A stretch of 64,000 nucleotides of DNA, taken from assembly GCA_018389105.1 (NCBI GenBank), contig JACATO010001006.1, positions 1-64,000 of the forward strand, written 5' to 3'. This DNA comes from Nautilus pompilius (taxonomy: Eukaryota; Mollusca; Cephalopoda; Nautilida; Nautilidae). The notes beneath the pieces were generated by a model. That model was not told the DNA's origin, searched no databases, and was given only the letters and a program-made list of their open reading frames with translations. Positions 2,778 to 32,942 of the stretch are shown here, piece by piece. Numbering within the stretch: position 1 is the first letter of the stretch; each line of letters begins with the position of its first letter. A program made the translations under genes and the position numbers.

Positions 2778-2795
2778 AATTACACAGGCCTGCAA
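2778..2795 (+). repeat. Left terminal inverted repeat
   Basis: AATTACACAGGCCTGCAA, an exact inverted match to 5065-5082. The core CAGGCCTG is itself palindromic. Confidence 0.85.
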
Positions 2796-11113: not shown

Positions 11114-11226
11114 ATGCCTAAGTCATTTTTGGTAAAAGAACAAAAAAAGTGCGAGTTACCACGACGCGGCCGGCACCGAGGAAAGTTGCAGAAGTGCTTT
11201 TCATTTCGTGGCACCAAAATTACCAG
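11114..11226 (+). CDS. GFI1: Gfi1-type repressor, first coding exon (SNAG domain)
   Basis: The ATG at 11114 starts MPKSFLVKEQKK, a SNAG repression domain. The vertebrate consensus is MPRSFLVK, with Arg to Lys here at residue 3. SNAG recruits LSD1/CoREST-type corepressors in Gfi1 and Snail families. The exon continues as a basic, Cys-containing stretch (CELPRRGRHRGKLQKCFSF) and ends ACCAG|GTAAGA, a near-consensus donor, after 37 codons plus two bases (phase 2). Read through unspliced, the frame hits TAA at 11228-11230, which supports splicing here. SNAG also begins Snail and INSM proteins. Gfi1 is favoured because the next recognisable gene piece on the same strand is the diagnostic Gfi1 six-finger array (30.4-32.9 kb). 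The piece is too short to be found by a long-ORF scan. Confidence 0.85.
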
Positions 11227-11989
11227 GTAAGAAAAAACAGACTTAAATCATCTACGTGCTGTCGGGACGTGGGGAGACGAAAGTAGTTCCTGGTATCTCT
11301 TTAAATGTCCCTAATTTGATCTGATTTTGTGCTATATTAACAACTTTGCGTAATTAAGAGCCCCGATCTTTGTTTATTCTTCAGCTGGTCAATTTTTAAA
11401 CACAGATTGAGCTCTCATCAACGTATCGTTCATTATAGACTGAAATCTAATTGAATGATGATACGAGTGATTTATTTAGTAATTATTATAATTTTTAAAC
11501 CGCTAACGTATGCATTGTAGATTTGTCAACAAACTTATCTTGAACAAATTAATAATCCGCTCCTTTAATACTGACTGGACCAGCAAACTACTCAAATTCA
11601 AGATGATTAGTTGCTCAGAGGGTGATGCCATGAACAATACGCTATTTGTAATTAAATTTGATTTAACCAGTTATTTATACAAAATCTACCGTAACGTAAT
11701 ATTAAGTTAAAGTAACCAGCTTTTAAGAATATATGATAGAGAAGTGGAGAATCAAAGGCTTCTAAAAGAACTAGATTAAAGTACACCAATTTAAACTTCA
11801 TCCCACCCAATTTCGAAGATTTCTCCAGACTTATTAAAACAACTTTACAATTATCAAGTGTTTGGTTACTCTAGAAGCTTGGCGAATACAAGAGCTAAAC
11901 AGATTAACGCCTTCTGTAGTATAAAATTGTTGATTCAATAAGAGATTTTAAGACAATTTATATTCCTTTTTTAGTCCACTCTTAAATGG

Positions 11990-12005
11990 CTAATAATAAT
12001 AACAC

Positions 12006-12047
<42 letters not shown>
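11990..12047. repeat. (TAA)n microsatellite
   Basis: AATAAT repeats with one CTA interruption near the left end. Confidence 0.9.
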
Positions 12048-12049
<2 letters not shown>

Positions 12050-12518
12050 CGTACGGATAAATGATAATAATTAAATAATTATTTATTCTCTCTCTCTATT
12101 TATATATATTTTTTACATAAACCGTAATCAATCTACATATGAACACTGATATAAATCGGAAACCTTTATTCATTTTTTCTCACTTATCTTTATTTACATT
12201 AATCAAATGTGGATATTTTCAATTTCTAGCCTTTTAGTCGATTTTCGCCCTTCGGTATAATTTTCACTACCGGTTTCTGCCTCCTTGCGATACATTGCTT
12301 TTACAATAATTATATATTAAAAATACTAGCATTAGGAATGTATTTCCTGCTTACTGAAAATGTATTTGATAAAATACATAAAAAATAAAAGACGAGCATG
12401 AAACGTAAAGAAATCGAAAAGGACAGGAAGCATGTAAAAAATGATGGACTAGTAGAAAGAAAGAGAGAGAAGAGAATTTTGAATACAATCTATAAACAGG
12501 CTGTGTGTGTGGTGTGTG

Positions 12519-12528
12519 CGAAAAAGAG

Positions 12529-12568
<40 letters not shown>

Positions 12569-13066
12569 TGAGAAGAGATAGAGAGAGGGAGAGGAGAGAG
12601 AGGAGAGAGAGAGAGAGAGCGAGATGAGATACAGACGTAAGGAGGGAGAGGGAGAGAGAGAGAGATGAGATAGAGCCGTAAGGAGGGAGAGGGAGAGAGA
12701 GATGAGATAGAGCCGTAAGGAGGGGGAGGGAGAGAGAGAGATGAGATAGAGCCGTAAGGAGGGAGAGGGAGAGAGAGAGAGAGATCGATAGAGCCGTAAG
12801 GAGGGGGGAGGAGAGAGAGAGAGAGAGAGATAGAGCCGTAAGGAGGGAGAGGGAGAGAGAGATGAGATAGAGCCGTAAGGAGGGAGAGGGAGAGAGAGAG
12901 ATGAGATAGAGCCGTAAGGAGGGGGGAGGGAGAGAGAGAGATGAGATAGAGCCGTAAGGAGGGAGAGGGAGAGAGAGATGAGATAGAGCCGTAAGGAGGG
13001 GGAGGGAGAGAGAGAGAGAGAGAGATGATAGAGCCGTAGAGCGGAGGGGAGAGAGAGAGGGAGAGG

Positions 13067-13103
<37 letters not shown>

Positions 13104-13125
13104 GTAAGGAGGAGAGAGAGAATTG
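12519..13125. repeat. Composite GA minisatellite, ~37-41 bp unit
   Basis: About twelve copies of a unit built on GATAGAGCCGTAAGGAGGG followed by a variable-length GA run. Units differ mainly in the number of GA steps. The long minus-strand open frame across it (Ser/Leu/Pro-rich) is a product of the repeat. Confidence 0.9.
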
Positions 13126-13242
13126 TAGAATTGGCAGAAATTGTAAGTCAGTCATCCACTTAATCTTGTCATCAAAGCTTTTCTTGCAGTTATATGCCCA
13201 TTATGCCATTTAGGTAGTTTATTTATTTTATTGAACTTCATT

Positions 13243-13375
13243 GGCTGCGCAGTGGTCTTATGGTTAGTTTACTGGACTGCTAATGTTGAGACCCTCCCAG
13301 GTGGAATTCCAACCGGAACTGGCTCGGTTTGGCGTGATTCCCTGGCTTAGTTTCTTCTGTAAATGAAGAGTTCTA
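13243..13375 (+). repeat. tRNA-derived SINE, copy 1
   Basis: GTGGTCTTATGGTTAGTTTA (A-box-like), TGGACTGCTAATGTTGAGAC, a decayed B box (GGTGGAATTCCAA), then GGCTCGGTTTGGCGTGATTC. The same order, with GGCTTGGTTTGGCATACTTC in the tail, occurs on the minus strand at 28975-29095, so this is a dispersed family rather than a tRNA gene. Confidence 0.6.
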
Positions 13376-13976
13376 GTAGGGATTTTCGCTCGTGGCCCCC
13401 CCCCCCCCACACACACGCTGAGCAGCGGTTGTGCAACCCAGTCGGCACGTAAGCAAACGCCCGACGAAACCCTTCTGAAGTGGAGCTATCAGTAACAAGT
13501 ATTGGTATGATAGGTTCATATCGAAACATTTTAAATTTACGAATTTTCTTAATTTTTTTCTTTTCTTTGTTCTTTCCATTAAAAGAAAACAAAAAATATT
13601 ATGCAGTTCTAACAGAAAACAAATTAAAATATCTTTAATAAAACGAAAGGTTAATTTGTATAAGTAATTTTCCTCCACTCGGCAGTTATTACTTATTTTA
13701 TTTTATAAACTTTCAGGGTATTATTAATAATAATTACCAAAGTTAATGTATTAGACAAAAACCCCTCTATAATCAATTTTGCATTACTTCAACATGAAGA
13801 TGAAGAACAATATTTTATCTTTGCCAATAAGATCTAAATATTTCTCTTATTTTGCATAAAAAGTGGTGTGAGAGTGCTTTATACACCTAAAAACATCGCA
13901 GAATTGTAAAAGAAATGATTTTTTTTTACCACAAAACTAGAACTTATCTACTCTCTATAGTCAGGGAAAACGAAAG

Positions 13977-14225
13977 CATCTTGGAAATAGAGTTGGTATT
14001 TCTCTCTCTATCTGTGTTTTCTTTATCTCTCTATCCATCTCTCGCACACAAAACTTGTCTAAAAATATCAAGGTGAAATTAACTTCGGGAGGAAGACAGG
14101 TCAATTTCCGAGTTTTTCCGGTGTGGCAGACAAATGCTTACATAAACAAGACAAGTAGATGGGAGATTTCACGACGTAATGCTGGATGATGTTTGATTAT
14201 GACACATGCACACTTCTAAAACGAG
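13977..14225 (+). repeat. Left arm of ~240-bp inverted repeat
   Basis: Runs from CATCTTGGAAATAGAG to CACTTCTAAAACGAG. Its reverse complement, about 90-95% identical by eye with a small CT-run length difference, is at 14955-15186. The ~730-bp spacer contains no recognised gene. Probably the ends of a fold-back or MITE-like element. Confidence 0.85.
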
Positions 14226-14954
14226 ATCTATAGATCTGTTCTGTTATGTCTAAAAATATTTTAGAAATTAAAACGCGCGCGTGTGTATACATATGTCATT
14301 TACAAATTATTCAAAACCAACACCTGTTTTATTGGTTTCTTCGTCTGGAGACGCATTTACGGCCCAGCTCGATAACTTTATGACAAACTCTAACGATACT
14401 TGGTCAGGACGAACCCGTGTAGGAAGGCAGCCGACTTGTCGTCCATCCCTGTCTTCCTAATGCCGCCATTTATTTTCAGATAATTTCTTTTTAAAAAAAA
14501 AAACAACAACAAGCAACAAACAAACAAAAGGCTGGTTTTCCAAGTTGGCATGTTTTCTTCGTGGTGGTGGTGAATGCAGGTAAACGTGTCTAGGGGTAAA
14601 CCGAAAACCGCCCAGGGTTCCAACTGAAGGGCGATGGGCCAATTATTATGATCAACAACTCGAGACCGGGGATCACGCTAGGGAGCCTGCAGCACAAGCC
14701 TCTGTCAGTCGGGGCCCGTCGATCGGAAAACCCTAACCCCTGGGGAAGAAAGCAAGCCTAGTCAGGGACCAGAGCGCACCTTGGAGCTTTGGTTGAATTC
14801 GCTATGTAACTTTCCGATGTTTTTATAGTTACTGGTAGGTTCCAAAGACATGGATTTGAAAGTAAAACGCCCAAGCTTTCATTTATTACCATTTCATTAT
14901 AACAAGTGACAGGTGTCTCCATTTTCAATGTTTATTTTTGTTTATTTCGACACT

Positions 14955-15186
14955 CTCGTTTTAAAAGTGTGCATGTGTCATAATCAAACATCATCCAGCA
15001 TTACGTCGTGAAATCTCCCATCTACTTGTCTTGTTTATGTAAAGCATTTGTCTGCCACACCGGAAAACTCGGAAATTGACCTGTCTTCCTCCCGAAGTTA
15101 ATTTCACCTTGATATTTTTAGACAAGTTTTGTATGTGAGAGATGGATAGAGAGATAAAGAAAAATACTAACTCTATTTCCAAGATG
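14955..15186 (-). repeat. Right arm of ~240-bp inverted repeat
   Basis: Reverse-complement partner of 13977-14225. The two arms could form a long hairpin in a transcript that crosses the intron. Confidence 0.85.
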
Positions 15187-15464
15187 TTTCTTTTTCTCCA
15201 ACTTCTCAAATATTGACTATAAACTGACATTTTGACACCTGAAAGCCATATCGATCCTGAAAACAATTACATTCTCTCGATATGGTCATTATCTTAGACT
15301 CTCAAAAAGTCTGAAAGTCAATAATGGAAGAATTAGCCGTATCAGTGCATTTGTATGCAGGTGAAAAAATGTAGGTTTATTCTTATTTTCTATATGTGAC
15401 CATCAGACATACGGCTAGATAGAATTTCTGCTTTATTCATCAGACACCTCAAACATGATACACT

Positions 15465-16245
15465 ACATAGGTGCTTAATATGTCCACCATCGCCATCCAC
15501 GCAGCCATTGCAGCGTCTGACAACAGCGACACACAGCGGCAGGCGTTCTCATAGGGATAACTGTTGTAGCATCAACAAATCTCAGTTAATGTCCGTGGTT
15601 TTTTGGCGCACACCTTGTCCTCCAACACCCCACAGGACGAGATCTGAAGAACGTGGCGGGCATTCAACTGGTCCGCACCGTCCCATCCACCTCCCAGTGA
15701 AGTGTGCATCTATAAATGTCCATACATCTTTGCCACACGCTTAGAACACGTGACGTCAGGGTCTGGCGTCCTGTTGCACGGTGCTGTCATTTACTAGCTT
15801 CCGAATTAAAAGTCTTAAAGTGGAGACAAAATGCCTTTGTACGGTAGCATACGATGTTTAATAAGCATTCAACTAATACGTTAAAACAAAAATGGATTCT
15901 GTTGCAGAGCCATACGTTTAAAGGTTCTGAATGATACAGCGATGAATCCGTAAACTTCTACCCAGTCGCCCTCTTCAGGGACACGGCGACCAGTTCTAGA
16001 TGCCAGGGCCGTGAATACATTCTCCAGCTGTCTGGGCTGTGCTGTGACCGGTAACTGCCTCGATGATGCCACCTCACTCTCAGAATTGTACGAACTGTTG
16101 AAGAGGGAAGGTTCAAATCTTGTGTGGTGCGGTGAACCGATTTCCACAGACTTTCATATATGCTCTTCGACGTCTGTAGCAGTTGCTGGTCTCTACCAGA
16201 GTTTTTTCCTCTTTCTTCAGTCAACTTCTGATGGATCCTAAACTT
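15465..16245 (-). pseudogene. Mariner/Tc1-superfamily (DDE_3) transposase fossil
   Basis: Read on the minus strand from 16245 downward. An N-terminal HTH-like block comes first (SIYESLWKSVHRTTQDLNLP, then SSTVRTIL). Much lower comes VQQDARP (where the family has QQDGAPPH), then FTGRWMGRCGPVECPPRSSD leading to LWG (family: FPGRWIGRGGPVEWPPRSPDLTPLDFFLWG), and finally a GGHIKHL-like end near 15465-15485. The middle third is eroded, and stops and frameshifts are frequent, so it is inactive. It lies antisense within the Gfi1 intron. TIRs were not identified. Confidence 0.7.
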
Positions 16246-16435
16246 CCGTTTTACCGGCTCCCGTCAGCCACAGGGTGCACCTAACAGTTTTCCTCCATTA
16301 CTGGCTTTTACTATAGTTTGACCAACAATCAGAAGTAATGAAAACTATGAGCGAGCGTCTTTTCAGTACAATTGGTTTCGCTCGGTCCTTTGTAGTTAAG
16401 TAATTATCAAACACTGACATCTCTCCAAGACTCTG

Positions 16436-16438
<3 letters not shown>

Positions 16439-16470
<32 letters not shown>

Positions 16471-16506
16471 TCCCTCCCTCTCCCCCCTCTCTCTCTGTGT
16501 GTGTTT
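16439..16506. repeat. (CT)n microsatellite with GT end
   Basis: CT repeats with CCC interruptions, ending in TGTGTGTG. Confidence 0.9.
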
Positions 16507-17253
16507 AAATATCTATTGCTAGTCGGAAAATATCCATGAGATCAATTTTAAAATTGTTGATTTTCAGTTTTAAATTTTTTTTTAAAAATAACCTAAAATT
16601 CTTAAAGTTTAGTAAAATTCATCCGAGGAATATTTTCCGACCACTGACAATACGTGTAAGTTGGCTAATATGGATAAAACGGCAACAAACATCTTTAATT
16701 TTATTTAGACGATAAACTCCATTAAAATATTAAAAATAAGGTTTCAACAAAATTCCAACTTTCACACCAGTTTCTAATACGTTTCAGTGTTTTTTCTCTG
16801 CCATTGTCAGGACCAATCTCCAAAAGAATAAGAAGCCGATGGTTAGCACTAAAACACGTAGTGTGAAATTGTTCCACCAAGATTTCATCCTCATGAGAGT
16901 TAAAAGAAGAGGCGTCATTTAAAATTGATTTTGAATTAATCCAAATAATAAATGTGACCCGCAGTAACTTTCAGTGGTTCTCTTGCTTAAATTGTAATAG
17001 CAGAATTTTGCAGCCTGAAGTTGGCGTATCCATTGTACAAAACGAAAGTTTCAGATACATTCATCACCTCTTCCTTCTCATCCCCAGTTTCTTCCCTGTA
17101 AAGTTGCTGTGATTCCGCAGGAACTATATCACGTTAAACAAAAGAACGGCAAGTCAATTTTTTTTTAATTCACACACCCAAAGATAGAATGTTGAATCTG
17201 TGAGCCGAATATTAACCAAGGGAGCCGAGGTGTTTGGTGGATTTTCCATTTAG

Positions 17254-17342
17254 CGTTTTCGGAGAGGGCACGGATTCACAAGACAAGATCAAGTCTGCAG
17301 AGAAGCAAATCCAGAGAGCATCCTGTTTAAAGGACAGCACCA
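17254..17342 (+). CDS. Candidate internal exon of Gfi1 (weak)
   Basis: An acceptor-like TTTTCCATTTAG ends at 17253, then one base plus 29 open codons plus one base reach a donor-like CCA|GTAAAC. The frame reads VFGEGTDSQDKIKSAEKQIQ and then RASCLKDST, a charged segment without known domain. Its phase (2 in, 1 out) is exactly what is needed to join the SNAG exon (ends phase 2) to the candidate exon at 24378 (enters phase 1). With it, the assembled coding length is 387 codons including the stop. The donor is weak and no homology is recognised, so chance is a real alternative. Confidence 0.22.
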
Positions 17343-18276
17343 GTAAACGACGCATAATGATAATATATAATGTGAAAATAGAGTCTACACGAGTAATAAT
17401 CGACGAATGTCGATAACACAATTGAAAAAAAAAAACGAACTAACCTAAGTGAAATGCATTTATTAACTGGGTATAAGTATTTCTGCCAGCTTTAATTTCG
17501 TGACGTCCGGAAGCCTACCACTCCATTTGTGAATTCGGAGTTTATTTTGATCATTTGGCCAAGGCGCCATTTAGCAAAGTCACTAACTAAACGACTCAGA
17601 CATTTTAATAATTCTGTTTCTAAATTATATAAAATTACTTTCTCGTATTCTATTCTGTAAAAAAGAAATCTACAAGTAAAATGAAGTAATTTCGTTCAGT
17701 TCATCTTTTTCTTCAGATCTAAGATGTGCCCCAAACTTTGTTTTGTGTGTGTGTGTGCCGCACTCATTCGCCTGCGGTAAATTCAGTGCACATGGAAGAT
17801 AAAAATGCTCATTTCTGTCGACCCTTCCAGCAATTATTCATTCATTACACAAGTGAGCGTGCATTGATTTCGGATACAAAATCATTGTTCGTCAAAGAGA
17901 ATGCCTCGCAAGAAAGATATGACACCACCGGCAGATAGAAACCAGGCCAGGGATGTGCATAGTCCCGGATGAAAAAATAGAGCAGTAATCTAAACGAGAC
18001 ATGACTACCCCGCCCATCACAAAAACAAACAAACAAGTAGCTTCCAGAAAACTAGCTGCTGAAACAGTTATAAAAAAAAAGTTTTTACAACGAATGTTTA
18101 ATTTTACAGTAACAAGAGGAAAAATGAGAAGCAATAATCAAAGGAAATCAAATTATTTATACATGCACAATATTGTTGATGTCCCCGTGTTATTATTCTT
18201 CGGTTTGATATGGCAGAATATTTTTGGAATATCGGATTTCAAATAAATTGAAACATGTTCACGAAATCAAAATATG

Positions 18277-18296
18277 TGATGATGATGATGATGATG

Positions 18297-18354
<58 letters not shown>
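18277..18354. repeat. (GAT)n(AAT)n compound microsatellite
   Basis: Six or so GAT units run directly into about 20 AAT units. Confidence 0.95.
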
Positions 18355-18355
<1 letters not shown>

Positions 18356-18529
18356 GTCCGTTTCTAAACCAGCAAATGGTAAAAATATTAATTTAATTGA
18401 TACATACTTGTGCTGGCAAGTAAAAAATAAATAGTAATAGTTAAATGAGTAAGTAGCATTGAATAAAGCTTAATATATTGTAAAATAAAACAGTATAAGA
18501 GATACTGGTGATGCTCATTGTAGAATAAC

Positions 18530-18790
18530 AGTGTTATGTACTGCAGTGCATTATGGCGTAGTGGACTTGATGTATGTAATGTCGTATAATGAAGCATAGT
18601 TTATGTACTGTACTGACATTTACTTTAGTGTAGTATACAGCAGTTTTATATAAATAGTGTAGCGTTAGTGTACTCCAATTCAGTGTAGTATTGTGCAATT
18701 TCTTGCGGTTTAGTGTTGTGTAGTGCATTGTATGTATTCCTCCTTTAAAGTGTAGTGGAGTGCAGTTTCGTATAGTTTAGTGCATAGCAT
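18530..18790 (+). repeat. Cryptically simple TGTAGTG-rich tract
   Basis: Imperfect, overlapping GTAGTG/TAGTGTAG words repeated for about 260 bp with very few C on the + strand. No fixed period. Confidence 0.6.
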
Positions 18791-20639
18791 TTTAAAAACT
18801 GAGTTGTTAGGGATGGCTCAGGGTCTAGAATAAGATTCGTTCTGGATTGTTACTTATGACTATTGGGCTTGGAAGTTTTTGCCAGTTAGGAATGTGTTTA
18901 CCGACAGACTAATGACAAAACCAAAACACGTATTAATTCGTATTGGCCACAGGCGCCGGGTTTCCGATACGTGCTGACGTAGTTTACTGAAGCAAATCGG
19001 TTTGGTCACCAATTTATTGGTGTCACTTATTGTTAGAGTAAGAAAACATGCCTGCAAATGTGATCTAGTTTTATTATAATTCATACCCTTTAATTCATTT
19101 ATTTTTGTAATCTTTTGCTATTGTGTGCTCCCCTCTCCCCATATACATAAACGCCCCCCTCCATCCATTCTCAACATTGTGCGTTTTTTAGCACATTTAC
19201 ATTTTACCCAGAATCCATTCTTTCGTATGTTGCTTTAATTTCCGGTCTGTTGTTTTCAAGTAGATCATCATGACGAAACCGAGAAGCTTGAAAACGCCAG
19301 ATAAACGCTGAAACAGGCGAAAACTTACCGAAAATAATTCAAGGTTAAAAAATGAACGTTTGTTATCAACCAAAAACTGACTCTACAAATAATTTAAAGC
19401 TGACAGAGAAGTAAAAACAAAACGGGATAGAATTCTCTTGCAATAAACTGAATGCCATAACGAAGTGTGCGCATTGGCGCATGGCTATGTTCGATGGAAG
19501 ATCTCAGCGATCTATTTAGAATGTTGCTAGTCAGTCCCAAAAATCTGCCAGGAAATCACGCGACGAATACTGCAGCATCCATTTTGGACGTATGAGTCTG
19601 CACTCATGTGTGCACTTCTGTATAATAGTCCCTTCCTCTTTAGCGAAAAAAGGAGGATCCAGGCCTGATTCCATGGTGTGCTGTTCTACTGTTCCAAGTT
19701 TATTCGGAACAGAAAGTGTCTGACTGTTCAGAATATTAGAGTGCGCGCGCGCGTGTAGCTAGATCGGTTCCACGTTCGTTACTAGCTCTCCATAATAGTA
19801 CAACGATCACAGATAGTAAAATCCTGTCAAAAAACTGGCATATAATAAGCAAAATAATCTCTACTATCACTTTGGAAAGGCAGATTACCATCACAACACC
19901 AAAATTTTATCATATTTTTGGAGTGTTCCAATCAGCGTAACTATTAGCAAGTAAGTGTTTTTTTTATTTTGAATTTAAAAGGTAAATCTTGTGCAACAAG
20001 AGGGTGGTCAAGTGCATTGACCGTTTCCGTGATAAGATGCCGGCTTCATAGAAGCTTCTTCTGTAGCACCGTTATGATAGTAGTAGTAGCTTTGTTTATT
20101 TAACAAGTCCGTAGAAGTGAGTTCAAAAGTGGGGATCACTCACCTCCGAAATGACCACTGAAACTCCCTGCTGCTGACTCAATACTATTAGAAGTGTAGT
20201 AAACGATCACATAGTGAAAATAACAACGTTCTACTGAAAAATGTTGTTTATTATTATAATAGATATTAACAGAACCGTTCATGAATACACATTGAGCAGT
20301 CTAACATGACAAAGATTTATGCAGATGCAATAAATAAAAATCTATGGTCGATTACTTGCAAATTATCCTCTGTTTCATTCTACCTTGGTTTCAGAAGTCT
20401 TGGGTTTGCGTCAGAGACCTAAAAGTCACAAACAGCTTACGGCTTATAATCTTCTCCTGCAGCTGCTTTGAGAAAGAGATTCTTAAGACTTGTGTTCACT
20501 TCATTCCCCGGCTGGTTCAATCAGTTTTGATCGAAGTTCTCTATTAAATGTACTTTATAATCAACATGTCTGTACCGCTCCTTCACAGTTGTGATACGGC
20601 AAGGAGCTTTATCAATACATCTGGGTGATCTTCTGGGAA

Positions 20640-20930: not shown

Positions 20931-23338
20931 AAATAGAATATCAAAATTTTCTATTACACTTTAAAGGGGCGTCGCCCCCTAACTGTCCACTATAATTCTA
21001 TTGGAAACACCGCGAGTACCAAGCCAGAAGGTAAAAACTTTTGATTCTGGGCGCTGGTTGATCGATAACGATAAATTAGACTAATAATCTTTTCAAATTT
21101 GCATTTTAATAGGACAGACTATTCTATAAAAACGAAATACCATAATCTGGGAGTATAAAGAAAAGTGGGGTGGTGCGTCGCCCTCCACCGTTCCTATGGG
21201 CATGTTTAAATTCTGTGTATTACTGTTCTCGATTAGAATCTTCCATCATAACTTTAGCGTAACCACAAATAGCGTATGGAACGTGCATACGTGTCACCTG
21301 AATGACCAACCACTTAAATAATCCGTTTTGTTTTACTTTCAGCATCCCAGATTTTCAGGAGAAAAAAGAAAGGCAGAAAAGGAAGAGTGGGAGGTCATTT
21401 TGTATTAATGTATTCCCTATAAAAATTATGTGGCTGCTTCCAGAGCGACAGCGATTCGTGCGCATGCAAGTCTGATAATGAAATGCTAATAAGGTTCCGC
21501 TTTCAGATTTTTTCGCTATAAATCTCGGAGAGTTTATTATGACACGTGTGTGTGCATCGTTGAACTTTGCTAGCAGCACGCCCCGCATCAGTTGCGTGCA
21601 GAGATGGGTGCTAGGTATATCGAAAGTAGTTTTGCAATAGTTTTCGAACAAACAACACGTATACTGCACGTATGTGGCCTCTCGTTTGTATTCATCTCAC
21701 GTAGCTCTTCAATAATTATCCCCATTAATACGATGACAGAAAAGAATGGTCCGTCAAAAGTGAAATAATTTGCCTCGCTTTTATTCCAATTAACTCCGCT
21801 AGTAAAAACCTGTGTCCCATCACCGAAAAGGCAGCGAAGCTTGTCGGCTCGTCCGACCGTGACAACCGTCTGCTGCCGGTTACGTCACCCTCCAGCATGT
21901 CACAATGGCCGTCATTTCGAAGTTTCTAAAACGAGGTAGACTTGCATGATTTTTGTTGTTGGTGGCAATAAATGCTTAACCAGTCACAAAATTAAGGATA
22001 AACGTTCCAAATTATAATCTTACAAAATCTTAAAATAGTAAATAGAAAAGTGAAAAGATTGAGCATTGAAATATTAGTCGAACCAGTACAAAGTGCATCA
22101 CGATGAGTTATATATAATACTGAACTTTTTCTAAAAAAGTTTAACTTTGTAAGAGAACAATTTAAAGTAGACAAAAGATAACGCAGAATAAACAGGAAGG
22201 AAACATTCTGATTTTAAACTTTAGATTAACAACACCTGGAAAAAAAAAAAACGTATACTACTCACAATCCAATGTTAGCTAAGAAGTGAATTAAGACTTA
22301 TGTATTGTAATCCTTATTTCTTATTAAACACAAAGTTTGTTTTAAATCTTTGGTGCTGGTTCTGACAAAATAAATAAAGTGAAAATGAAAAAAAGAGTTG
22401 TAAGTTGAGTTTACTTTCCTATTAAACCCACTTCGTAGTTATGTTAAAGGATCACTGAAGTTCATACGATTAGGCCTTAATTCCAAGTTACTAGTCACAG
22501 ATTATCAAATTAGTATTCACATCGATACTTCTTTCGGAAACTGTAAACTTTGTGTACTTGAGATTTTTTGAAATAAACGTTTTTTATAGTAGTAGCACTA
22601 GTTTCCATGCAAACTCTTTATAACACCATTTAATACAATCATGACGCAAACAGATGGCTAGTGATTTTCTTAACAGGAGAGCTGCGTATAATTAAACATT
22701 TGGTATTTTTCAAAGACCCTACGGGAGACAACGCAGCTTCAGAAAGAAGTCGATATGCAAAAACAACTGCGTATGTATCATAGTTGTGCAAGAGCTAGCC
22801 TCTACGGTGTAGAGTATGAAAGCACAAAATGGCGGTCTCCGGGTATGAAAATATTTAATTATTTCCATCTCATAATTTGTGATTCGCAATTTTTGCATTG
22901 AAAAATGAATAATAAATAATAGTGATATTCATGTCAAAAACTAAGAACCTTACTGTTTCCTTGAGTAGTGAATATACTCAATTAGTGCCCCCAAACTAGA
23001 TTTAATTACGGTTTAATATAACACACAAATAAATGCAGTAAGTCTCTTTTTTAAAACTCCGGACACATTTGTGTATAATTTCGGTGAAAACTATTAATTC
23101 CGACACTTTAAAGCGTAATTGGTGTCGCCTTATTAGTCCGGACATTATTACAGTGGAACTTTGTTGACGGATTCTCTGATTTCTGACACACATTCAGACT
23201 TAAATCATCTAAGGTTTCCATTCTTCTAATTTAGCAGTACATTTTAACATTTCTATAGCAATCAAGGAGGTATGTATAAATAATAGCAGCTAAAATACGT
23301 TGATACAAATTATTTTCAGGAAGTCCACAAACGATCAC

Positions 23339-24044
23339 TTAGATTAAGGTCCGATGATTGAGACGGCCATGAGAGATCACTGTCTTGAAAGTATTCACCC
23401 CTATTAGGGTGCATGTGAAACATCGCTGGATGCGCTTGATCAGAAATAATGCTAAAGTAAGGTTTGGCATTCTTTCTGCCTTGTAAAGAGTCCAGGGGGA
23501 TCTAGAGTGTGATAAAAAAAATATGCCCCAAACCAGAGGCCTGAACAGTTGGGGCCACATAAAAAAAGTCGAGTGATTCGTGTGGCTTTCTCCGAATCTG
23601 TCCTCTCCCGTCTGTACAAAAAAGGGTGAATCGCGACTCGTCAGACAACATCACTTTTCGCCAGTCCTCCTCAGTCCATCGTCTGTTCTTGTACCACACG
23701 AGACCATTTTTCATGTTGGTAACTGTGACCAGTGGTTTATGTAATGGTCCCCTTGTTGTAATGTTCTACGCAAGGTACGGCTGAAGACGTGTGTGGATTT
23801 CCCGGTACTGATTGCCTCTGTTATTAGATTATTGTTTCCTGATGGTTAGATTTTACTATCTTTCGTAACCACCTTTCTCTTTTTGTCACTACGTGTTTGT
23901 GACCCAATTCCCACTCGTAACAGACATTTTATTCACTTTTCTTCATTGCTGCTAAACTTTAATAACCGATATTCTGGACACTACGACATCTGCACCCGCC
24001 ATCATATCTCTTTCGAACGCTGTGATGTCTTTACCTTTCGGCAT
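23339..24044 (-). pseudogene. Tc1-like transposase fossil
   Basis: Reading on the minus strand from an ATG at 24044: MPKGKDITAFERDMMAGADV, the conserved Tc1 N-terminus. Stops follow quickly. Around 23714-23502 the catalytic region reads RRWTEEDWRKVMLSDESRF with the first catalytic Asp in SDES, then a second block with PTVQASG. Further down, FHMHPNRGEYF and DLSWPSQSSDLNLSDRLW stand where the family has WPAQSPDLNPIEHLW, so the third catalytic Glu region is altered. Multiple stops and frameshifts make it dead. Antisense within the Gfi1 intron. Confidence 0.85.
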
Positions 24045-24377
24045 GTCTGTTAGAATGACTGCAAATACACTTGTCTAAGTCTCTTATAGTGCTTCAGGGA
24101 GCACCTGTCACTTCATGTGGTTAGCCTAATTTGAATCTACAGTTCAGCTAAAACCAGGTCCAAGTCTGAAAGGGGCCAGCAACTACTGAATCTTTCCGTT
24201 ATCTATTTTTAAAATCTCTATTTGCTGTTAACTTGAAGAAAAAAAAAACAGACAAATTCACTCACTTTTTTGCAGAACTCTTTTCATTGTGCGAATTCTA
24301 AATGTAATTAGACAAAAAAAAAAAATCGAATCAGATGCGTACTGTTTATTATTCTTTTAAATTTGGTGTCTTTCTAG

Positions 24378-24545
24378 ATAAAAAGTTGATAGAGAACTGT
24401 GTGACGAATTTCCCACCACCTCTGCTGACTGCCGCTGCCAACTTCTGCCTGATTCATCCCGTTCCCCAGACCGAAAAGATTACGACAATCGGCGGAGACT
24501 ACACCGCTTTCCGACCCTGGGTGAACAAGGACAATGACCAAGGAG
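24378..24545 (+). CDS. GFI1: Probable internal exon of Gfi1
   Basis: An acceptor-like TTTCTAG ends at 24377 and a donor GGAG|GTATCT follows 24545, with 168 bases open between. The frame has NFPPPLLTAAANFCLIHPVP and later GGDYTAFRPWVNKDNDQ, with GC-rich third positions that stand out from the AT-rich intron on both sides. It enters in phase 1 and leaves in phase 1, and the zinc-finger exon (30453) enters in phase 1, so the two join in frame at a Gly codon. I recognise no domain. Gfi1 proteins carry a poorly conserved linker between SNAG and fingers, which this would be. Alternative: an exon of an unrelated or nested gene. Confidence 0.5.
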
Positions 24546-25383
24546 GTATCTTCACTTTACAACCTCAGAAACGCGAGAGTTGCCGAGACAATACGGGCTT
24601 AGAGAAAGAAAATAGTAGTTATGTAACTCCATGAAGTTCTAATAAAGTACAACGCTGAAGTATTTATAGAACCGAATAGACAGACGTACATATCGTCATC
24701 GTCAAAGTAGAGGCTGTTTATAGCTGATTAAAAATTTCTTGTGTCTTCCATGACTAGTGCTATTATTGCTATCAGATCGTAAAATAATGGCTTTTTTGTA
24801 TTTTAGAAAAAAATTCTTTAGTCTTCATGGCTTACATAAGCAGGAGATGCAAAACAACGCCCCAGAACGTCTTTTAGGTAGAATGATTAAACTGGCTAAA
24901 AACATAGACGAGCGAGCCGTTATACGAAAGCTTGGCTGTAGCAGGAAGTAACTATTCACGATCAAACACTAGCCGAGATTATTCGAAAAACAGAAATGCT
25001 TCGCCAGACATTCACATTTTATATATGAAATACATGGACAAAGCTTATAGATTATGTCGACAAGGCCAATCATGTCTGCTGATAGAGCGATTTCATATTT
25101 TCATAGTATAAAATATAAATTAAAACATTTAACGGTTTTATTTAATTAAAGTCTTTTTATTGTGGCATGGCTTGGTGTGAATTTACTTCTAGGGTTATAT
25201 TGGTAAGTTGTGCGAAAAACCTGTGAATGAGACAAACGAAATAAGCTGACTTACGTGAAGAAACAAACCGCAAAAAGATGGTCTAACCACAAAATTAAGA
25301 AGAAGAAACGGAATTAGTGAAACTTGAAACTTTTCATGAAATTTAAAGCACATTAGAAACGAGCCAGCCCCAAAGTGAAATCG

Positions 25384-25384
25384 T

Positions 25385-25441
<57 letters not shown>

Positions 25442-25457
25442 TACACACACAAACACA
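25384..25457. repeat. (CT)n(CA)n compound microsatellite
   Basis: About 24 CT units followed by CACACACATACACACAC. Confidence 0.95.
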
Positions 25458-25599
25458 CATATGCCTTTACCATGAGGGATATCTTTGACTGGTCAAGCAA
25501 CAAAACGTTGCCGTGGACCATTGGTGGCTCCGTCGAAAGCTTTAATGCGGGTAGAGGAATGTTGCTCGTGCAGCGTGAACCAAAGAACAAGGTCGCACT

Positions 25600-25860
25600 C
25601 CTGAACGGGACTCCACCGTGCCGAGATTGGCGGGCGATGGCAGTAGGCGCGATTCGAGCTGCCATGACGACAAGATCTGTTGCACAACAATTGAAATGTC
25701 GGCACAGACTATGGTCAGATTAATGCAACGGTTACGGAAGACGAGCCAAGCAAAGGAACGTCAAATTCGGCTGTTTCCGGGCTCAAGGGGCGCAGGGCCG
25801 ACGAGGAATTGTCAGCGGTATTACATTTACGTGCTGCTCTTTTCCTTGTTTTGCGATTTA
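25600..25860 (+). pseudogene. Tc1/mariner N-terminal (HTH) fragment
   Basis: WRAMAVGAIRAAMTTRSVAQ and, one frame over, VRLMQRLRKTSQAKER and SRGAGPTRN match the paired helix-turn-helix of Tc1-like transposases (pattern: AVGMIRAGMT-x-RxVA and RxRETGSTxxRxRSGRPR). Only the DNA-binding part remains and a frameshift near 25720 breaks it. It is sandwiched between a CT microsatellite and a TAA microsatellite. Confidence 0.6.
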
Positions 25861-25908
25861 GGCTTAGTCTATTCAGTTCAATTATTTTCTAAATGATAAT
25901 TCAACACT

Positions 25909-25934
25909 TACTATAATAATAATAAATAATAATA

Positions 25935-25971
<37 letters not shown>

Positions 25972-25990
25972 TAATATAATAATAATAAAC
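25909..25990. repeat. (TAA)n microsatellite
   Basis: TAATAA repeats with periodic TAAATAA and TATAATAA interruptions. Confidence 0.95.
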
Positions 25991-27966
25991 GAGTTATACT
26001 GGGACCGAGCTTAAGGGAGGCAATTGTAGTCAAAATAGACAAAGAATGGGATTTAAAAAACTGTCATGCTCCCGACCCCCCACGTCATTTCAATGGCGAT
26101 AAAATCACGAAAACTGGGGCTACTTTCTCGTATAACCAAAAAAACAAAATTAAAATGGACACTGCTGTAATTTCAACATAGAGCTAGAAGAGGGTGGCTC
26201 ATAAGTCCTTTCGCCTCTATGCAATGTGTTGTTGTTTTATGAAGAACCATTTATATTACATAACTATGGCAACTTTCCCCCTGGTTCTTCCTCTCCATAA
26301 CAATAGTTTAATGTGACCTTTTTTTTTTACACGGCAGCCCATAAATTTCTTCATTCCTCGTGTCTCGCGGTTTTGTGTGGGCGCCATATTTATCTCGACC
26401 TAAGATCACGTGGCGCCAGATCCGGCGGGACATCGTTCCAAGCGAGGCTGGTCCAGCAGCCGTAAATGCGGCAAAGCCAGCAGGTTTTAAGTAGTCGCCA
26501 CGATCTCCTCGACGTAGCCCGGGGGGTCTGGAGACTCGTCAGATCCTTCACCCATCCCTCTGCTCGGAAGGATTTCGTCGACGAGGACCCGGACAGCTGA
26601 TGTATAATGCGCTGGCGGCGGCGGCCCCTCGTCGGGACTACACCGACGCCGTTCTTTCTGGCATGGAACAAACCACGCCCCCGAAATATGTAGATATGTC
26701 CTTTGATTGACACAGCCCAATAATGCGCCGACTGTTCACTGCAGCCCAATGGGGAGAAGGACTTTAGGGTTTAAGGGTCATCTTGTAGTGCAGTAATTAT
26801 TTCTATTCCCCCCCCCCAGAATCATAGCTACTGAAAATTGAAATAAAACAAAGGGCTCTTTCAGCTACAGAAGAAAATTGTGATTTTCTACAAACGTCCA
26901 GTGAAATGCTGCACATTTACTCTCTGTAAGAAAAAGAGCGCCACCTGGTACAGGGAAACGCGCCGATGTCGGTCGGATGAGACATTTATCCTGCGCCTAT
27001 CATTTATTTTGTAAACAGGGTTAATTAATGCTGTATATTGGAGGACGAAGCAACAACATAACACATTTATTTCAGCAGTCGCCATCAAGAAAAGAATAAA
27101 ACAAGACCTTCATAGACTATTTTATTATGTGACGACCTCGAAATTCTGTACACGCCGGGGTGGGTCCGACAAAGATCGCTATTCTACTTTTATTTAGTTT
27201 AAATGACTTTATCATTTTTTTTTTTAAAAAAAAAAACAAACTGTTTGTTTTTTCTATAGTTTTTTAATTCTAAAATCATGAGGGATCACCTGTTATCAAG
27301 GAAACAGGAAGAGAAAACAATCAAAACTAAACAAATGACGGGCGGGGGAGAGTTAAGAGTAGATGTGAAGGAATATGCGAACGGTATTCGTTAGAATTTA
27401 TTGAGGATGTTTCAATCCGCTTACTCCGCCAGCCGGTGGGTGATATAGCTCGTCTTGCAGAGTTTAAATTGTCAGAAAGCTTTATAAATAGAGTACTGTT
27501 AAGGGGCCATTGTATTATTTACCTTACTTTCTTGGGGACCCCCCAAAAATGATAAATAAATAGCGCTGTAAATGAGAAGAAGCGAAATAAGACGGGTCGG
27601 AACTACAGGGAAGAAATAGATTGTCTAAATTTTAGTGAAATATAATTTTTTAACTATTTGGAAAACGTTTAAGGCAAACATTTCTTACGAAGTAGTGTGT
27701 AAAAACGAAGTGCAAGGACGACACCAAGCAATAAAATTATTTCTTTCTTAGTGATGATAATTTAAAAAAAAAACAACAAAAAAGTTTTTAGAATTTTTTG
27801 ATTTCTTTGAAGTATTTTATCATTTTGTTTAATTATTTTCTTGCTAATATTCTTTCTGTTTTTTTCTTTCTTTATACTTCTTTTCTCGTTTTAATTCTCT
27901 GGACCAAAGTGGTGGTCAGGTCTAATTAAATCTAAGAGTAGAAATTACGCGCCATTTGACTGTGTT

Positions 27967-27986
27967 CATCATCATCATCATCTCTC

Positions 27987-28027
<41 letters not shown>

Positions 28028-28028
28028 C
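27967..28028. repeat. (CAT)n(CT)n(CA)n compound microsatellite
   Basis: ATCATCATCATC, then CT repeats, then CACACACACACA. Confidence 0.95.
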
Positions 28029-28974
28029 TACCTTTCTCTCTTCTTATTACCCACCCCTACACATTAATACAACAGATGCCCACATAGTGGATAAGTATTA
28101 TACTGCGCTGTTTGAATCTCGTTACTTTCTGTCAACATCTGTTTTAAAGCATAAAAATCATATGAAACCCTTATCAAATATGACATTAGTTGAAATATAA
28201 AGTTGTTTATCATCTGTATTCATTTTTTTCCATCATTAACAGTTTGAAGCTGATATTTTATTTATTTATACAATTGTCACTGCATTTAAATCTATTATTA
28301 ATGTAGTTTTGGTTTTATTGTTTATTGTTTTTTTACATTAATACTTCAATTAAACTTTTAAATCTATGCATATATAAATTAATTTCTGAGTAAACGATGT
28401 CAGTCTTGTCAATTCAGTTTCCAAGAACGACTTTACCTAAGTAAATGGGATAACATGTCGTGAAAGTGAATGCTTTCATTTGTAAATAAGTAGAAATACA
28501 TATTATATTATATTATATTATAAGTTACTAGCTGGGTAACTGGCACTGCTTGGGGGAAGAAATGGCTTTAGGCCAATGTGCGGTAGCTTAAAATCCTGCC
28601 CAGATGCAGAGGTACTTACACTCAAAATGGGGGCCTCTGAGTGCTAAGATTCGACCGTGAAAGAGTAACAAATAAACACTTGAAAATATGTGTTATATTT
28701 TTTCAGGAAATGCTTCATTCAAACGTTGTTTGTTTTCCCGTCGAATCCCTGTCCCAACTTTTGATGTCGAAGGACATTGCAGTTCTAACAACGAGCTAGA
28801 ATTGGAAAGATGTGAGGTGGCAGTCTCGCTGACCAAGCGAGTTACCTGGGTACAGTAAAGGGAGGGGTTCTTAGCCTGAAGTCAGGGTGACAGCCAGTCT
28901 GGAGGTACCGTGAAACCTCAACCATGTGTACTTGAAAAACTCTACTAGAACTCTTTATTTTTAGATGTGAGGAG

Positions 28975-29095
28975 AAACCATGGTAGAGAAGGAAGTATGC
29001 CAAACCAAGCCGCTCCCGACCAAGATTCGAACTCGGTGGGGGGGTCTAAACCGTGGTAGTCCAGTAGTGAGGCCACCCGCTGCCCATATTCAAGT
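28975..29095 (-). repeat. tRNA-derived SINE, copy 2
   Basis: On the minus strand: GGGTGGCCTCACTACTGG (A-box-like), then a good B box GAGTTCGAATCTTGG, then GGCTTGGTTTGGCATACTTC. Same arrangement as 13243-13375 on the other strand. Confidence 0.6.
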
Positions 29096-30452
29096 AATTA
29101 AACAACGAACCTTTCTGGTTGATACTGTTCCATTCTGTGGACTCGGAGGGAAAAGTAATAAAAGCAAAACGAATGAACAAGGAAACAGAAATGGGTTTCA
29201 AAGACGCAGTAAAAATTAAATGATTAGTATTACCGCAATCTTGTTCTATTCTGAAGTTAAATTACAACTCTAAATCTTTAGATATTTCAAAAAAAATATT
29301 CTAAACAAATACATTTTAAAACTTTTTGCAGGACGCAATAAATCGTATTTGATTATCGGCGCCATGACGTCAACTTTACAAAGTCATGCGCAATAAAGAG
29401 CAGAGAAATAGAGATTAAAATAAGAAGATAACCCGTTTCCATCTATAGGAAAAAACAACGAACAGTAAATTTTATATTTGTGTTCGGTCGAACACCAATC
29501 TGTTTCTACTGCAGAATTAACTGTCTGCTTTAACAGATTCTAAAAGGAATTAAAGCTAAGTGATTCCCTTTCATCTTATATTGCTTTCTCATCTTATTTA
29601 TGAACGTATAGCATCTAGATCAGAATTAATTGGAATTGCTTACTTATTCGTGTAATAATGGTGTTTTAGTTTGGGTAAACAAGCTCAATGATTACCTACA
29701 GCTGTAGTCAAAATTATTAGATCATCAGAAATAATCCAGATTTTCTAAAAGTGTAGTTATACCATAAATATTACAAAGTTTAAGCATTTGTTTTGCTGGT
29801 TTATCATTTATGTTAAGTAATTTGCAGAAATAACATTCCTTAGCGAAAAAAAATGTTTTTTTAAAGTTTACTTCTCTGTCACTCTATAGTTTCATCTCAA
29901 CAAGAAATAACTCCCTTAAGGATGTTCAGTAAAGTGTCCCTATGAATATTAAAACAATGTTTAATTGGCTTTATTATGTTAAAACGTATTTTTACAATGT
30001 AGCACATTTTTTAAAGTATAAATTGATGCAAAAATCTTGGCCTTTACTGTATTTGTGGTTTTCACGTTCGAGTTAGTGTTATTTGAACACGAGATTTTTT
30101 CTCTCTTTCTCCACTTCAGGATAACTAATACAATGAATAAAATTTCATACATATATAGCAAATGACTTATTCTTTATTAACTAATAATTTTTAACTGTCA
30201 ACATTATTCCGTTGATACATAATTCATAAAATTTTATCGATAATTTATAACGACCGCATATAATTAACAATTTTTACTCGCTTGGGTTGCTTTCTTAACT
30301 AAGTTTTACAGGGGGATAACTCTTCTCGTTTCTTTTTGAAAATTGGTTGTTTTTCCCCTGTTACGTCACATTTAGGAGCTTAGTTTTAAGACACTCGCTG
30401 TACCGTTTTAATTTATTTTAATTTTTTCGTTTCGTGTTTACTTCAGCTTCAG

Positions 30453-31019
30453 GTACATTGTACGTGCCAGGAAAGTACCCCAGCCCGCTGTCTTACCAAG
30501 GATATTCGGGAGCACTGAGATCGGACACCCGAGCGCTCATAGAAAACTTTTATCTCGCGCACAGACATCTGTACGGGAACAATGTCCGCACCGAAGATGA
30601 CTTCCGTGAAAAGACGACGCTAGTGGAGACCTCGCAGCAGGCGGGCGAGAAAGCAGCCGAGGGGATCCTAGTAAACTCTCCGTCGTCGACGTTCGAGTGC
30701 ACAAACTGCAACAAGCTCTTTGGCACCCCTCACGGGCTGGAGGTGCACGTGCGCCGCTCGCACAGTGGCTCGCGGCCTTACGCTTGCGAAGTGTGCAACA
30801 AGACGTTCGGACACGCAGTCAGCCTCGACCACCACCGGTCCGTGCACACCCAGGAGAGAACATTCGAGTGCAAGCAGTGCGGGAAGACGTTCAAGCGATC
30901 CTCCACGCTCTCTACCCACCTGCTCATCCACAGCGACACCCGGCCTTATCCCTGTCCTTACTGTGGGAAACGCTTTCACCAGAAGTCGGACATGAAGAAG
31001 CACACCTACATACATACGG
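30453..31019 (+). CDS. GFI1: Gfi1-type repressor, zinc-finger exon (fingers 1-4)
   Basis: Two acceptor-like CTTCAG sites end at 30446 and 30452, both giving entry phase 1; 30453 is chosen as the second. After a linker ([17 protein letters not shown] and onward) come four C2H2 fingers: [20 protein letters not shown] at 30692, [19 protein letters not shown] at 30779, [19 protein letters not shown] at 30863 and [19 protein letters not shown] at 30947. The words [24 protein letters not shown] and [20 protein letters not shown] are diagnostic of Gfi1/senseless and almost unchanged from vertebrate GFI1. Fingers 3-5 of this family bind AATC-core DNA. The exon ends ACGG|GTAAGC in the finger 4-5 linker (HTG|EKP), phase 1. 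Expected to be a nuclear DNA-binding repressor of neural/sensory and blood-type cell fate in animals. Confidence 0.95.
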
Positions 31020-32718
31020 GTAAGCGGCTGGCTTGGCCATTTTTCCTCCACTGAAAAGAAATAAACAGCGACAAAAACTAAAACCGTATCTGGTTCATCT
31101 AGAATTACTGATCTCGATGTTTCGCTGCTAACAGTTCAAGAAACGCTGGAATTGTCGACGGGAATGCAGCAAAGATACTAATTTATTCATAATATACGTC
31201 AGTTGGTGAGATGTCTTTGTTACTGACGCCACTTTAAAAGGCTTAACCCTTTGTATACTACGTCAGTTTTTACTTCTCTTAGACCACCTGTGGCTAGCCT
31301 AGAAGCTCCAGTTTCTACCTGTGCTGAGTAATACAGATTTGAAGCTTTAAAAAAAGTTAAAAATGGAAGAACTACCAGAGAAATGCGAAAACTGCGTCTA
31401 AAAGAAAACATGACAGTTAATTTTTTTTTTAAACGTTATCACGGTTGGTTTTTCATGAAGAAAAAATCGTGTTATTTAAAGAATCTGAACAGTGCATCCT
31501 ACTACTATTCCCCATCTCGACTAATTTACCATCTGTTGACATTCGGATGCGATGCTAACCATGCTTCCCCCTTTACATGTAATACAGTGATCATGGCGTT
31601 CTTTAACAACGCTGGTCTCTGTAGCGCGAAAAAGAATTTTCCTTTATTGAAGTGCTTTTGGCATAGTAACGTTTCGCAACCTTTGACCTCTCTACTCTCA
31701 GCACGTTCAATGACTCGCTGAAATTAATTTCATTGTGGCAGTTAAAGCGCGTCTTACATTTCCCAGCGAGATAGAAAAGTTGAATTTTAAACAAAAGTAA
31801 TTAATTCTTAATACAGAATGCAGTATTGTCGTTTTTTTTTTAAATCGCAGTTTAAGTACAAAATTACAAACTTGCTGCATCCATACCCTGATTTAGTTAG
31901 ATTGTATGATATCCTATTTGAAATGCAGTGTATAGACAACAATAATTACCGTTGATTTCTTAGCAGTTGGTCAGACAAATACGTTATCATTTTAACAACT
32001 TTTGCAAGCCATGGTTTTGTTGTTTTAGATGTTTTATGAAGACTTTTATGGGCGATTATCGAAACGTTTATTTAAAATCACAACTTTCTAAAAGTGTTTA
32101 TTCACCGGGTTTTTGTATTATTCAACTGATAATGAGCCAAAATACAAGAAAAGATCAACACGAGGAGGATGAAGTAAATAATCACTAACGCGAGTGATTT
32201 AGTCATGTTTATCGTTACATTTTCAAGTCGGACTAAAAGCGAAGCTAGAATTAACGAACAACAAGGTAAACAAAAGTTTACAACAAATGCGAATGTTTTG
32301 GCTTTAAAACTGTAGGAGATTTTGTATGATAATCCCTTAGAGAAAACTAAAGATATATATTATCGAAGGACCGGCTGTTCATTGTCTTTAAGTTAATCCA
32401 GTACCGATTTCGGGAAAGAAACAAATTATATGGACTTTAAAGTTTACGGTTTTTCTTTCTGTCTTTCCTTTACTTGGTGTTACATCCGGAGGAACGTTTA
32501 TGTTAATATGTGCTGCACAGTCCATCTTCACTGCATTTTTTAAGTCATGTAAACAAAGTTTTATTTTAAGATTCTAAATTATTAAACATTATAAAAACCC
32601 ATCGCCGCCTTTAAAAAAATGGCTGTATGAAAATCGAAGCGTATTAATTGCATGTTGTTTTTCGAGCAGTGTTCTTTTAAATATTTTAAAGATGTCTGCT
32701 TTATTATTTATCTTCCAG
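31020..32718 (+). other. Last Gfi1 intron
   Basis: GTAAGC donor to a TTATCTTCCAG acceptor, 1.7 kb, AT-rich. No other feature recognised. It interrupts the TGEKP linker between fingers 4 and 5. Confidence 0.9.
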
Positions 32719-32942
32719 GCGAAAAGCCACACAAGTGTCTACAATGCGGGAAAGCCTTCAGTCAGTCATCCAACCTGATCACTCACAGTCGAAAACACAC
32801 CGGCTTCAAGCCGTTCGCTTGCGATAAGTGTGGGCGTGCGTTTCAAAGAAAGGTGGATTTACGGCGCCATGTTGAGACACAGCACGCTCCTGTCATCAAT
32901 AAACCTTTGTTGCAACCGCTACCAGTTCTACAGTCAGTTTGA
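32719..32942 (+). CDS. GFI1: Gfi1-type repressor, terminal exon (fingers 5-6)
   Basis: The acceptor TATCTTCCAG ends at 32718. Two bases complete the Gly of HTGEKP. Finger 5 is [19 protein letters not shown] (32730) and finger 6 [19 protein letters not shown] (32814), both closely matching GFI1 fingers 5 and 6 including the [19 protein letters not shown] linker. A short tail ([18 protein letters not shown]) ends at TGA 32940-32942. The full model with the two candidate internal exons is 386 residues, between human GFI1B (about 330) and GFI1 (about 422). Drosophila senseless has four fingers, so the six-finger form here is the non-dipteran arrangement. Confidence 0.95.

What the first reader, a model, noticed from the sequence alone, without database searches (positions are those of the whole stretch)
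11114..32942. A Gfi1/senseless gene split over 22 kb, with a SNAG exon too short for ORF scans
Seen directly: MPKSFLVK at 11114 with a near-consensus donor, and six Gfi1-type zinc fingers at 30.45-32.94 kb with perfect phase-1 splicing across the finger 4/5 linker. Known: SNAG plus six C2H2 fingers defines Gfi1/Gfi1b. Inferred: they are one gene. The SNAG exon ends in phase 2 while the finger exon enters in phase 1, so a direct splice breaks the frame and at least one exon must lie between.
Basis: partly seen in the sequence, partly recalled or inferred. Interest (0 to 1): 0.7.

Follow-up and report, generated by a model that had tools for sequence, protein, structure and literature searches.

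The report
Gfi1 repressor gene with SNAG tip
This stretch of an unnamed animal genome most likely holds one gene for the Gfi1/Senseless zinc-finger repressor, spread over 22 kb and starting with a short repressor-recruiting tag that some papers describe as confined to vertebrate members of the family.

Summary
MPKSFLVK lies at 11114 (+), four codons after an in-frame stop, in a 113-nt exon whose donor is in the top 0.06% of GT sites. Six Gfi1-type fingers lie in two exons (30447 or 30453 to 31019; 32719-32942), joined in phase 1 inside the Gly codon of the finger 4/5 linker; human GFI1B has an intron at that codon and phase.

That they are one gene is well supported, not proven. In 291 kb of the contig this is the only SNAG-like start and the only C2H2 cluster, in the right order and strand. 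The Gfi1 fingers are single-copy in the genome search. I add a probable intervening exon, 24378-24545, phase 1 in and out, which fits the finger exon. It cannot take the SNAG donor directly, so one more exon is needed; the two candidates are no better than chance.

It is a member of a known family. The interest is SNAG on an apparently non-vertebrate Gfi1, against statements in two papers. The phylum was not established.

The parts
11114..11226 (+). SNAG coding exon, MPKSFLVKEQKKCELPRRGRHRGKLQKCFSFRGTKIT, ends in phase 2
   Evidence: Sequence; in-frame stop four codons upstream; donor top 0.06%
17254..17342 (+). Unproven candidate for the phase 2-to-1 exon after SNAG (SVFGEGTDSQDKIKSAEKQIQRASCLKDST)
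   Evidence: Open and in phase, unique in the genome, but not better than control stretches
21343..21386 (+). Second unproven candidate for the same slot (IPDFQEKKERQKRK); good acceptor, poor donor
   Evidence: Acceptor 5.4, donor -1.1; open when joined; not better than control stretches
24378..24545 (+). Probable intervening coding exon B, phase 1 in and phase 1 out, KKLIENCVTNFPPPLLTAAANFCLIHPVPQTEKITTIGGDYTAFRPWVNKDNDQG
   Evidence: One of three loci passing in 582 kb of both strands, thresholds set after seeing it; splice sites only top 5-6%; no Pfam match
30447..31019 (+). Finger exon with fingers 1-4 and the stretch before finger 1; the start may be 30453 instead; enters and leaves in phase 1
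30565..30565 (+). Internal acceptor (exon would start here) that would allow a direct in-frame splice from the SNAG donor
   Evidence: Score 2.0; open 263-aa product
31020..32718 (+). Intron splitting the Gly codon of the HTG|EKP linker between fingers 4 and 5, phase 1, as at human GFI1B Gly272 (c.814+1)
   Evidence: PMC5368270 passages
32719..32942 (+). Last coding exon with fingers 5 and 6 and stop TGA

Best explanation
One gene of the Gfi1/Senseless family on the + strand, from about 11.1 to 32.94 kb, with a separate first coding exon for the SNAG peptide, probable exon 24378-24545, at least one exon not yet identified, and two finger exons. The protein would bind DNA through the Gfi1-type fingers. 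By analogy with vertebrate GFI1/GFI1B, its free N-terminal SNAG peptide would dock into LSD1 (KDM1A) as a mimic of the histone H3 tail and bring LSD1-CoREST to target genes, which are then repressed. Shown here: motifs, phases, splice-site scores, single copy, exclusivity on 291 kb of contig. Inferred: the transcript, the SNAG-proximal exon and all the biochemistry.
For: Only SNAG-like start and only C2H2 cluster in 291 kb, same strand, right order. Chance of the motif 1.2e-5 (strict) to 7e-4 (relaxed) per window; in-frame stop just upstream and a donor in the top 0.06%. Fingers single-copy: 444 bits against 144 for the next locus. Fingers 3-5 match all 82 residues of solved Gfi-1 fingers 2kmk at 166.9 bits. 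Finger 4/5 intron at the same codon and phase as human GFI1B. Exon B between them fits the finger exon in phase. The stretch before finger 1 aligns with recalled human GFI1, 5 of 1000 shuffles as good. Joined models with either candidate exon are open.
Against: No transcript. SNAG joined to exon B stops after 38 aa, and joined to 30453 is out of frame. No candidate for the missing exon beats controls. Coding log-odds of the SNAG exon are slightly negative (-2.75). Exon B ranks only 29th of 787 overlapping open 55-codon windows in 11.2-30.4 kb by composition, the best lying near 26.5 kb, and shows no likeness to recalled GFI1 or GFI1B (935 and 605 of 1000 shuffles as good). Two ATG exons without SNAG could also feed exon B in phase.
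Confidence: 0.88

Rival explanations
1. The SNAG exon belongs to another SNAG-type gene (Snail, Scratch, OVOL or INSM type) and Gfi1 starts from a first exon without SNAG.
For: The motif is shared by several families (PMC2688512 passages; OVOL and INSM recalled). Nine of the other 17 pattern hits in the genome read MP[RK]xFL[VI]K (read by eye). The phase mismatch is unresolved. Two ATG exons ending in phase 1 with donors of 3 or more lie at 15324-15360 and 17792-17852.
Against: No other C2H2 cluster on the same contig up to 291 kb. About ten SNAG-like starts in 728 Mb would fall within 20 kb upstream on the same strand by accident with a probability near 1e-4 (my estimate).
Confidence: 0.06
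2. Both are Gfi1, but some transcripts join SNAG directly to an acceptor at 30565, giving a short 263-aa SNAG plus finger protein, with exon B and the stretch before it used only in other transcripts.
For: The joint is open and in frame; the acceptor scores 2.0, like that of exon B (2.07).
Against: It would drop the stretch before finger 1 that aligns with recalled GFI1; the usual acceptors at 30447/30453 score higher.
Confidence: 0.1
3. MPKSFLVK at 11114 is a chance string in non-coding DNA.
For: Coding log-odds of the exon are slightly negative; the codons after the eighth show no likeness to GFI1 beyond KK.
Against: Expected 1.2e-5 per window, 7e-4 relaxed, and it stands just after an in-frame stop, before a donor in the top 0.06% and upstream of the only Gfi1 fingers.
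Confidence: 0.03

Closest known systems
Vertebrate GFI1 and GFI1B
   Same: N-terminal SNAG, six Gfi1-type C2H2 fingers, intron at the same codon and phase in the finger 4/5 linker (GFI1B c.814+1, PMC5368270 passages); a 25-residue stretch before finger 1 aligns with recalled GFI1
   Different: One gene instead of two; fingers 1-4 lie in one exon, whereas skipping of GFI1B exon 5 removes fingers 1 and 2; the middle region is otherwise not alike
Drosophila Senseless, C. elegans PAG-3, Daphnia GPS
   Same: Same finger family
   Different: Senseless is reported with four fingers and no SNAG, PAG-3 with five fingers, Daphnia without SNAG (PMC2889900 and PMC9098437 passages); here six fingers and a SNAG
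Snail and Scratch
   Same: SNAG N-terminus followed by C2H2 fingers (PMC2688512 passages)
   Different: A characteristic set of five fingers of another type; the fingers here are six and Gfi1-type

Membership tests
Gfi1/GFI1B/Senseless | Six C-terminal C2H2 fingers of Gfi1 type | tested here: met
   Six units; 2kmk Gfi-1 matched over all 82 residues (four chains rank above it, three of ZNF568 and Aart, by summed repeats of generic fingers)
Gfi1/GFI1B/Senseless | Phase-1 intron in the Gly codon of the finger 4/5 linker | tested here: met
   HTG|EKP against GFI1B c.814+1, Gly272
GFI1/GFI1B (SNAG-bearing) | N-terminal SNAG, MP[RK]SFLVK | tested here: met
   Present at 11114 after an in-frame stop
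GFI1/GFI1B (SNAG-bearing) | SNAG and fingers on one transcript | not testable with these tools
   No RNA data; frame and contig evidence only
GFI1/GFI1B (SNAG-bearing) | SNAG binds LSD1-CoREST and represses | not tested
   By analogy only
Snail/Scratch | Characteristic five-finger domain after the SNAG | tested here: not met
   The only C2H2 cluster in 291 kb is six Gfi1-type fingers

The most novel reading that the evidence does not exclude
A non-vertebrate animal keeps a full six-finger Gfi1 with an N-terminal SNAG, so SNAG belonged to the ancestral Gfi1 and was lost in lineages such as flies. This would overturn the published view that vertebrate Gfi1 acquired it and that the acquisition helped secondary sensory cells evolve.
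Probability: 0.65. Interest if true: 0.5.

Novelty: new member of a known kind. Interest (0 to 1): 0.4.

Why it matters
[quoted passage not shown] A single-copy, six-finger Gfi1 with a SNAG exon in an apparently non-vertebrate animal makes that claim directly testable. It also shows how a 37-codon first exon 19 kb upstream can be missed, so that a protein is wrongly called SNAG-less.

Tried and rejected
One exon bridging SNAG (phase 2) straight to the finger exon (phase 1): two weak candidates in 11.2-30.4 kb. With relaxed limits, 24 candidates of phase 2 to 1 lie between SNAG and exon B; 17254-17342 ranks fourth, 21343-21386 third. In one search, candidates of at least 80 nt with coding log-odds of 4 or more: 1 in the 13 kb itself, 1 on its minus strand, 6 and 7 per 31 kb at 33-64 kb (+ and -), 2 and 0 at 0-10.9 kb, and 1, 1, 2, 0, 2, 0 in L009-L011; so neither is claimed. 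SNAG joined to exon B stops after 38 aa; joined to 30453 it is out of frame. The only other phase-1 donor before the stop in the SNAG exon, at 11208, scores -8.3. phmmer of the SNAG exon against the PDB: nothing at E up to 10. Pfam for exon B with the stretch before finger 1: nothing. Rfam on the window: 0 matches.

Phylum: 117 COX1-like matches were found (list shown), nearly all interrupted by stops under the standard code; their letters could not be fetched, so the phylum stays open. That the animal is not a vertebrate rests on one Gfi1-type gene against two in humans. A species guess from genome size was searched once and is not claimed. Not obtained: the genes behind the other SNAG-like hits, and genome-wide uniqueness of exon B (asked from then on, never answered) and of the SNAG exon (asked once). 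Exon A is unique.

Papers: passages only were seen of PMC9098437, PMC5368270, PMC2688512, PMC2889900, PMC9676683, PMC7649360, PMC3009687 and PMC3538684; all others only as search listings. Jafar-Nejad and Bellen 2004 is not held. A search for the GFI1B splice variant by its code gave 0 papers; led to PMC5368270. That I saw no paper describing SNAG in a non-vertebrate Gfi1 rests, of which 17, 47 and 55 listed only 20 of 532, 12 of 380 and 15 of 591 papers; sequence databases were not searchable.
Full report
Setting. That it is an animal is inferred from the Gfi1 gene itself; the phylum was not established.

The SNAG exon. ATG at 11114 opens MPKSFLVKEQKKCELPRRGRHRGKLQKCFSFRGTKIT. An in-frame TAG lies four codons upstream, so this methionine begins its frame, as a SNAG requires. 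The exon runs 113 nt to AG|GTAAGA; its donor scores 7.25 on a generic matrix, top 0.06% of 3525 GT sites in the window. By base composition MP[RK]SFLVK is expected 1.2e-5 times in 64 kb and 0.13 times in the genome, a relaxed form 7e-4 and 8.3 times. A relaxed DNA pattern has 18 hits in the genome against 8 for the reversed control. Reading the 18 by eye, ten are MP[RK]xFL[VI]K, the window's included; three are exactly MP[RK]SFLVK.

The finger exons. Six C2H2 units lie at 30698, 30785, 30869, 30953, 32736 and 32820. Fingers 3-5 match all 82 residues of the solved Gfi-1 fingers 2kmk at 166.9 bits; four chains (three of ZNF568, and Aart) score higher by summed repeats of generic fingers, with single stretches of at most 77 bits among the two chains shown. 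In the genome the first finger exon scores 444 bits and the next locus 144 bits at 45% identity, so the gene is single-copy in this search, which scores only the best candidates. The intron after 31019 splits the Gly codon of HTG|EKP after its first base. Human GFI1B carries a splice mutation c.814+1G>C at Gly272 that removes finger 5 (PMC5368270 passages); base 814 is the first of codon 272, so codon and phase agree.

Are they one gene? In 291 kb of contiguous sequence the SNAG at 11114 is the only SNAG-like start and the six fingers the only C2H2 cluster, with one isolated pattern match at 281964. Both are on the + strand, in the right order, 19 kb apart. About ten SNAG-like starts in 728 Mb would put one within 20 kb upstream on the same strand by accident with a probability near 1e-4 (my estimate). 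The contig begins 11 kb upstream of the SNAG, so nothing further upstream can be seen.

What lies between. SNAG ends in phase 2 and the finger exon enters in phase 1; joined directly they are out of frame. Exon B, 24378-24545, was first seen by eye. It enters and leaves in phase 1 and reads on into the finger exon. With thresholds set after seeing it, three loci pass in 582 kb of both strands: the finger exon, exon B, and one at 134564 on the minus strand. Against it: its splice sites are only in the top 5-6%, and by composition it ranks 29th of 787 overlapping open 55-codon windows in the interval, the best lying near 26.5 kb. Exon B cannot take the SNAG donor: the joint stops after 38 aa. 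So one more exon, phase 2 to 1, is needed if exon B is used. Candidate 17254-17342 is unique in the genome and gives an open protein of 386 or 388 aa; candidate 21343-21386 gives 371 aa. Neither beats control stretches and neither is claimed. Two ATG exons without SNAG, 15324-15360 and 17792-17852, could also feed exon B in phase.

The middle region. [25 protein letters not shown] before finger 1 aligns with [25 protein letters not shown] of human GFI1, score 44, reached by 5 of 1000 shuffles; against GFI1B, 937 of 1000. The SNAG exon scores 43 with both (2 and 0 of 1000). Exon B gives 935 and 605 of 1000 and exon A 196 and 934 of 1000, that is, nothing. The human sequences were recalled, not fetched.

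How it would work. By established biology the fingers bind DNA and the free SNAG peptide, like the histone H3 tail, binds LSD1 and brings LSD1-CoREST to targets (PMC7649360 and PMC5368270 passages). In flies the family also coactivates proneural factors through its fingers, without SNAG (PMC9098437 passages). None of this was tested here.

What is known. The gene is a Gfi1/Senseless family member. [quoted passage not shown] In the Snail superfamily SNAG parts were lost many times (PMC2688512 passages), so loss in some Gfi1 lineages is plausible. Six searches showed me no paper describing SNAG in a non-vertebrate Gfi1, but long listings were cut and sequence databases could not be searched, so such records may well exist. 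One Gfi1 gene here, against two in humans, suggests a non-vertebrate. If the SNAG exon is used, the vertebrate-acquisition account is wrong or incomplete.

Limits. No transcripts, no relatives, no phylum. The genome service answered 5 of 38 searches, so the other SNAG genes and the COX1 copies were not read.

Noticed in passing
window 13974-15189: Near-perfect inverted repeat (arms 89-100 nt, 98-99% complementary, 0.7-0.9 kb apart), probably a transposon with terminal inverted repeats inside the presumed first intron.
   Followed up: partly
window 38188-39448: Tandem array of a 180-base unit, 7 copies, 94% matches, with long open frames across it.
   Followed up: no
window 55013-55698: Tandem array of a 90-base unit, 7.6 copies, 94% matches; because 90 is a multiple of three, several frames on both strands stay open.
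   Followed up: no
window 57163-57902: Imperfect CT-rich tandem array with repeated TGACGTCA, about 54- to 226-base units.
   Followed up: no
window 36418-36897 (+), 23502-23765 (-), 25379-25896 (+): Fragments that look by eye like Tc1/mariner transposases; only the first has a Pfam match, DDE_3 below its cut-off (E 0.014); the pieces tested of the other two (23502-23765 and 25379-25723) have none.
   Followed up: partly
window 26390-26770: GC-rich stretch with the highest coding-like composition on the + strand of the presumed intron and open frames on the minus strand; no Pfam match. Unexplained.
   Followed up: partly
L011:322-567 and 2671-2997 (+), about 82.3-85.0 kb of contig C961: Protein-like exons that resemble by eye (recalled) the PC-esterase protein CPED1, perhaps the next gene downstream; no Pfam or PDB match.
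   Followed up: partly
genome G000, many contigs: 117 COX1-like matches, nearly all with stops inside (TGA above all), probably nuclear copies of mitochondrial DNA.
   Followed up: no
genome G000: C264, C577, C870, C2021, C590, C294, C895, C964, C2046: Nine other starts that read MP[RK]xFL[VI]K, probably including Snail/Scratch, INSM and OVOL type genes; C577 has a C2H2 match 6 kb downstream on the same strand.
   Followed up: no
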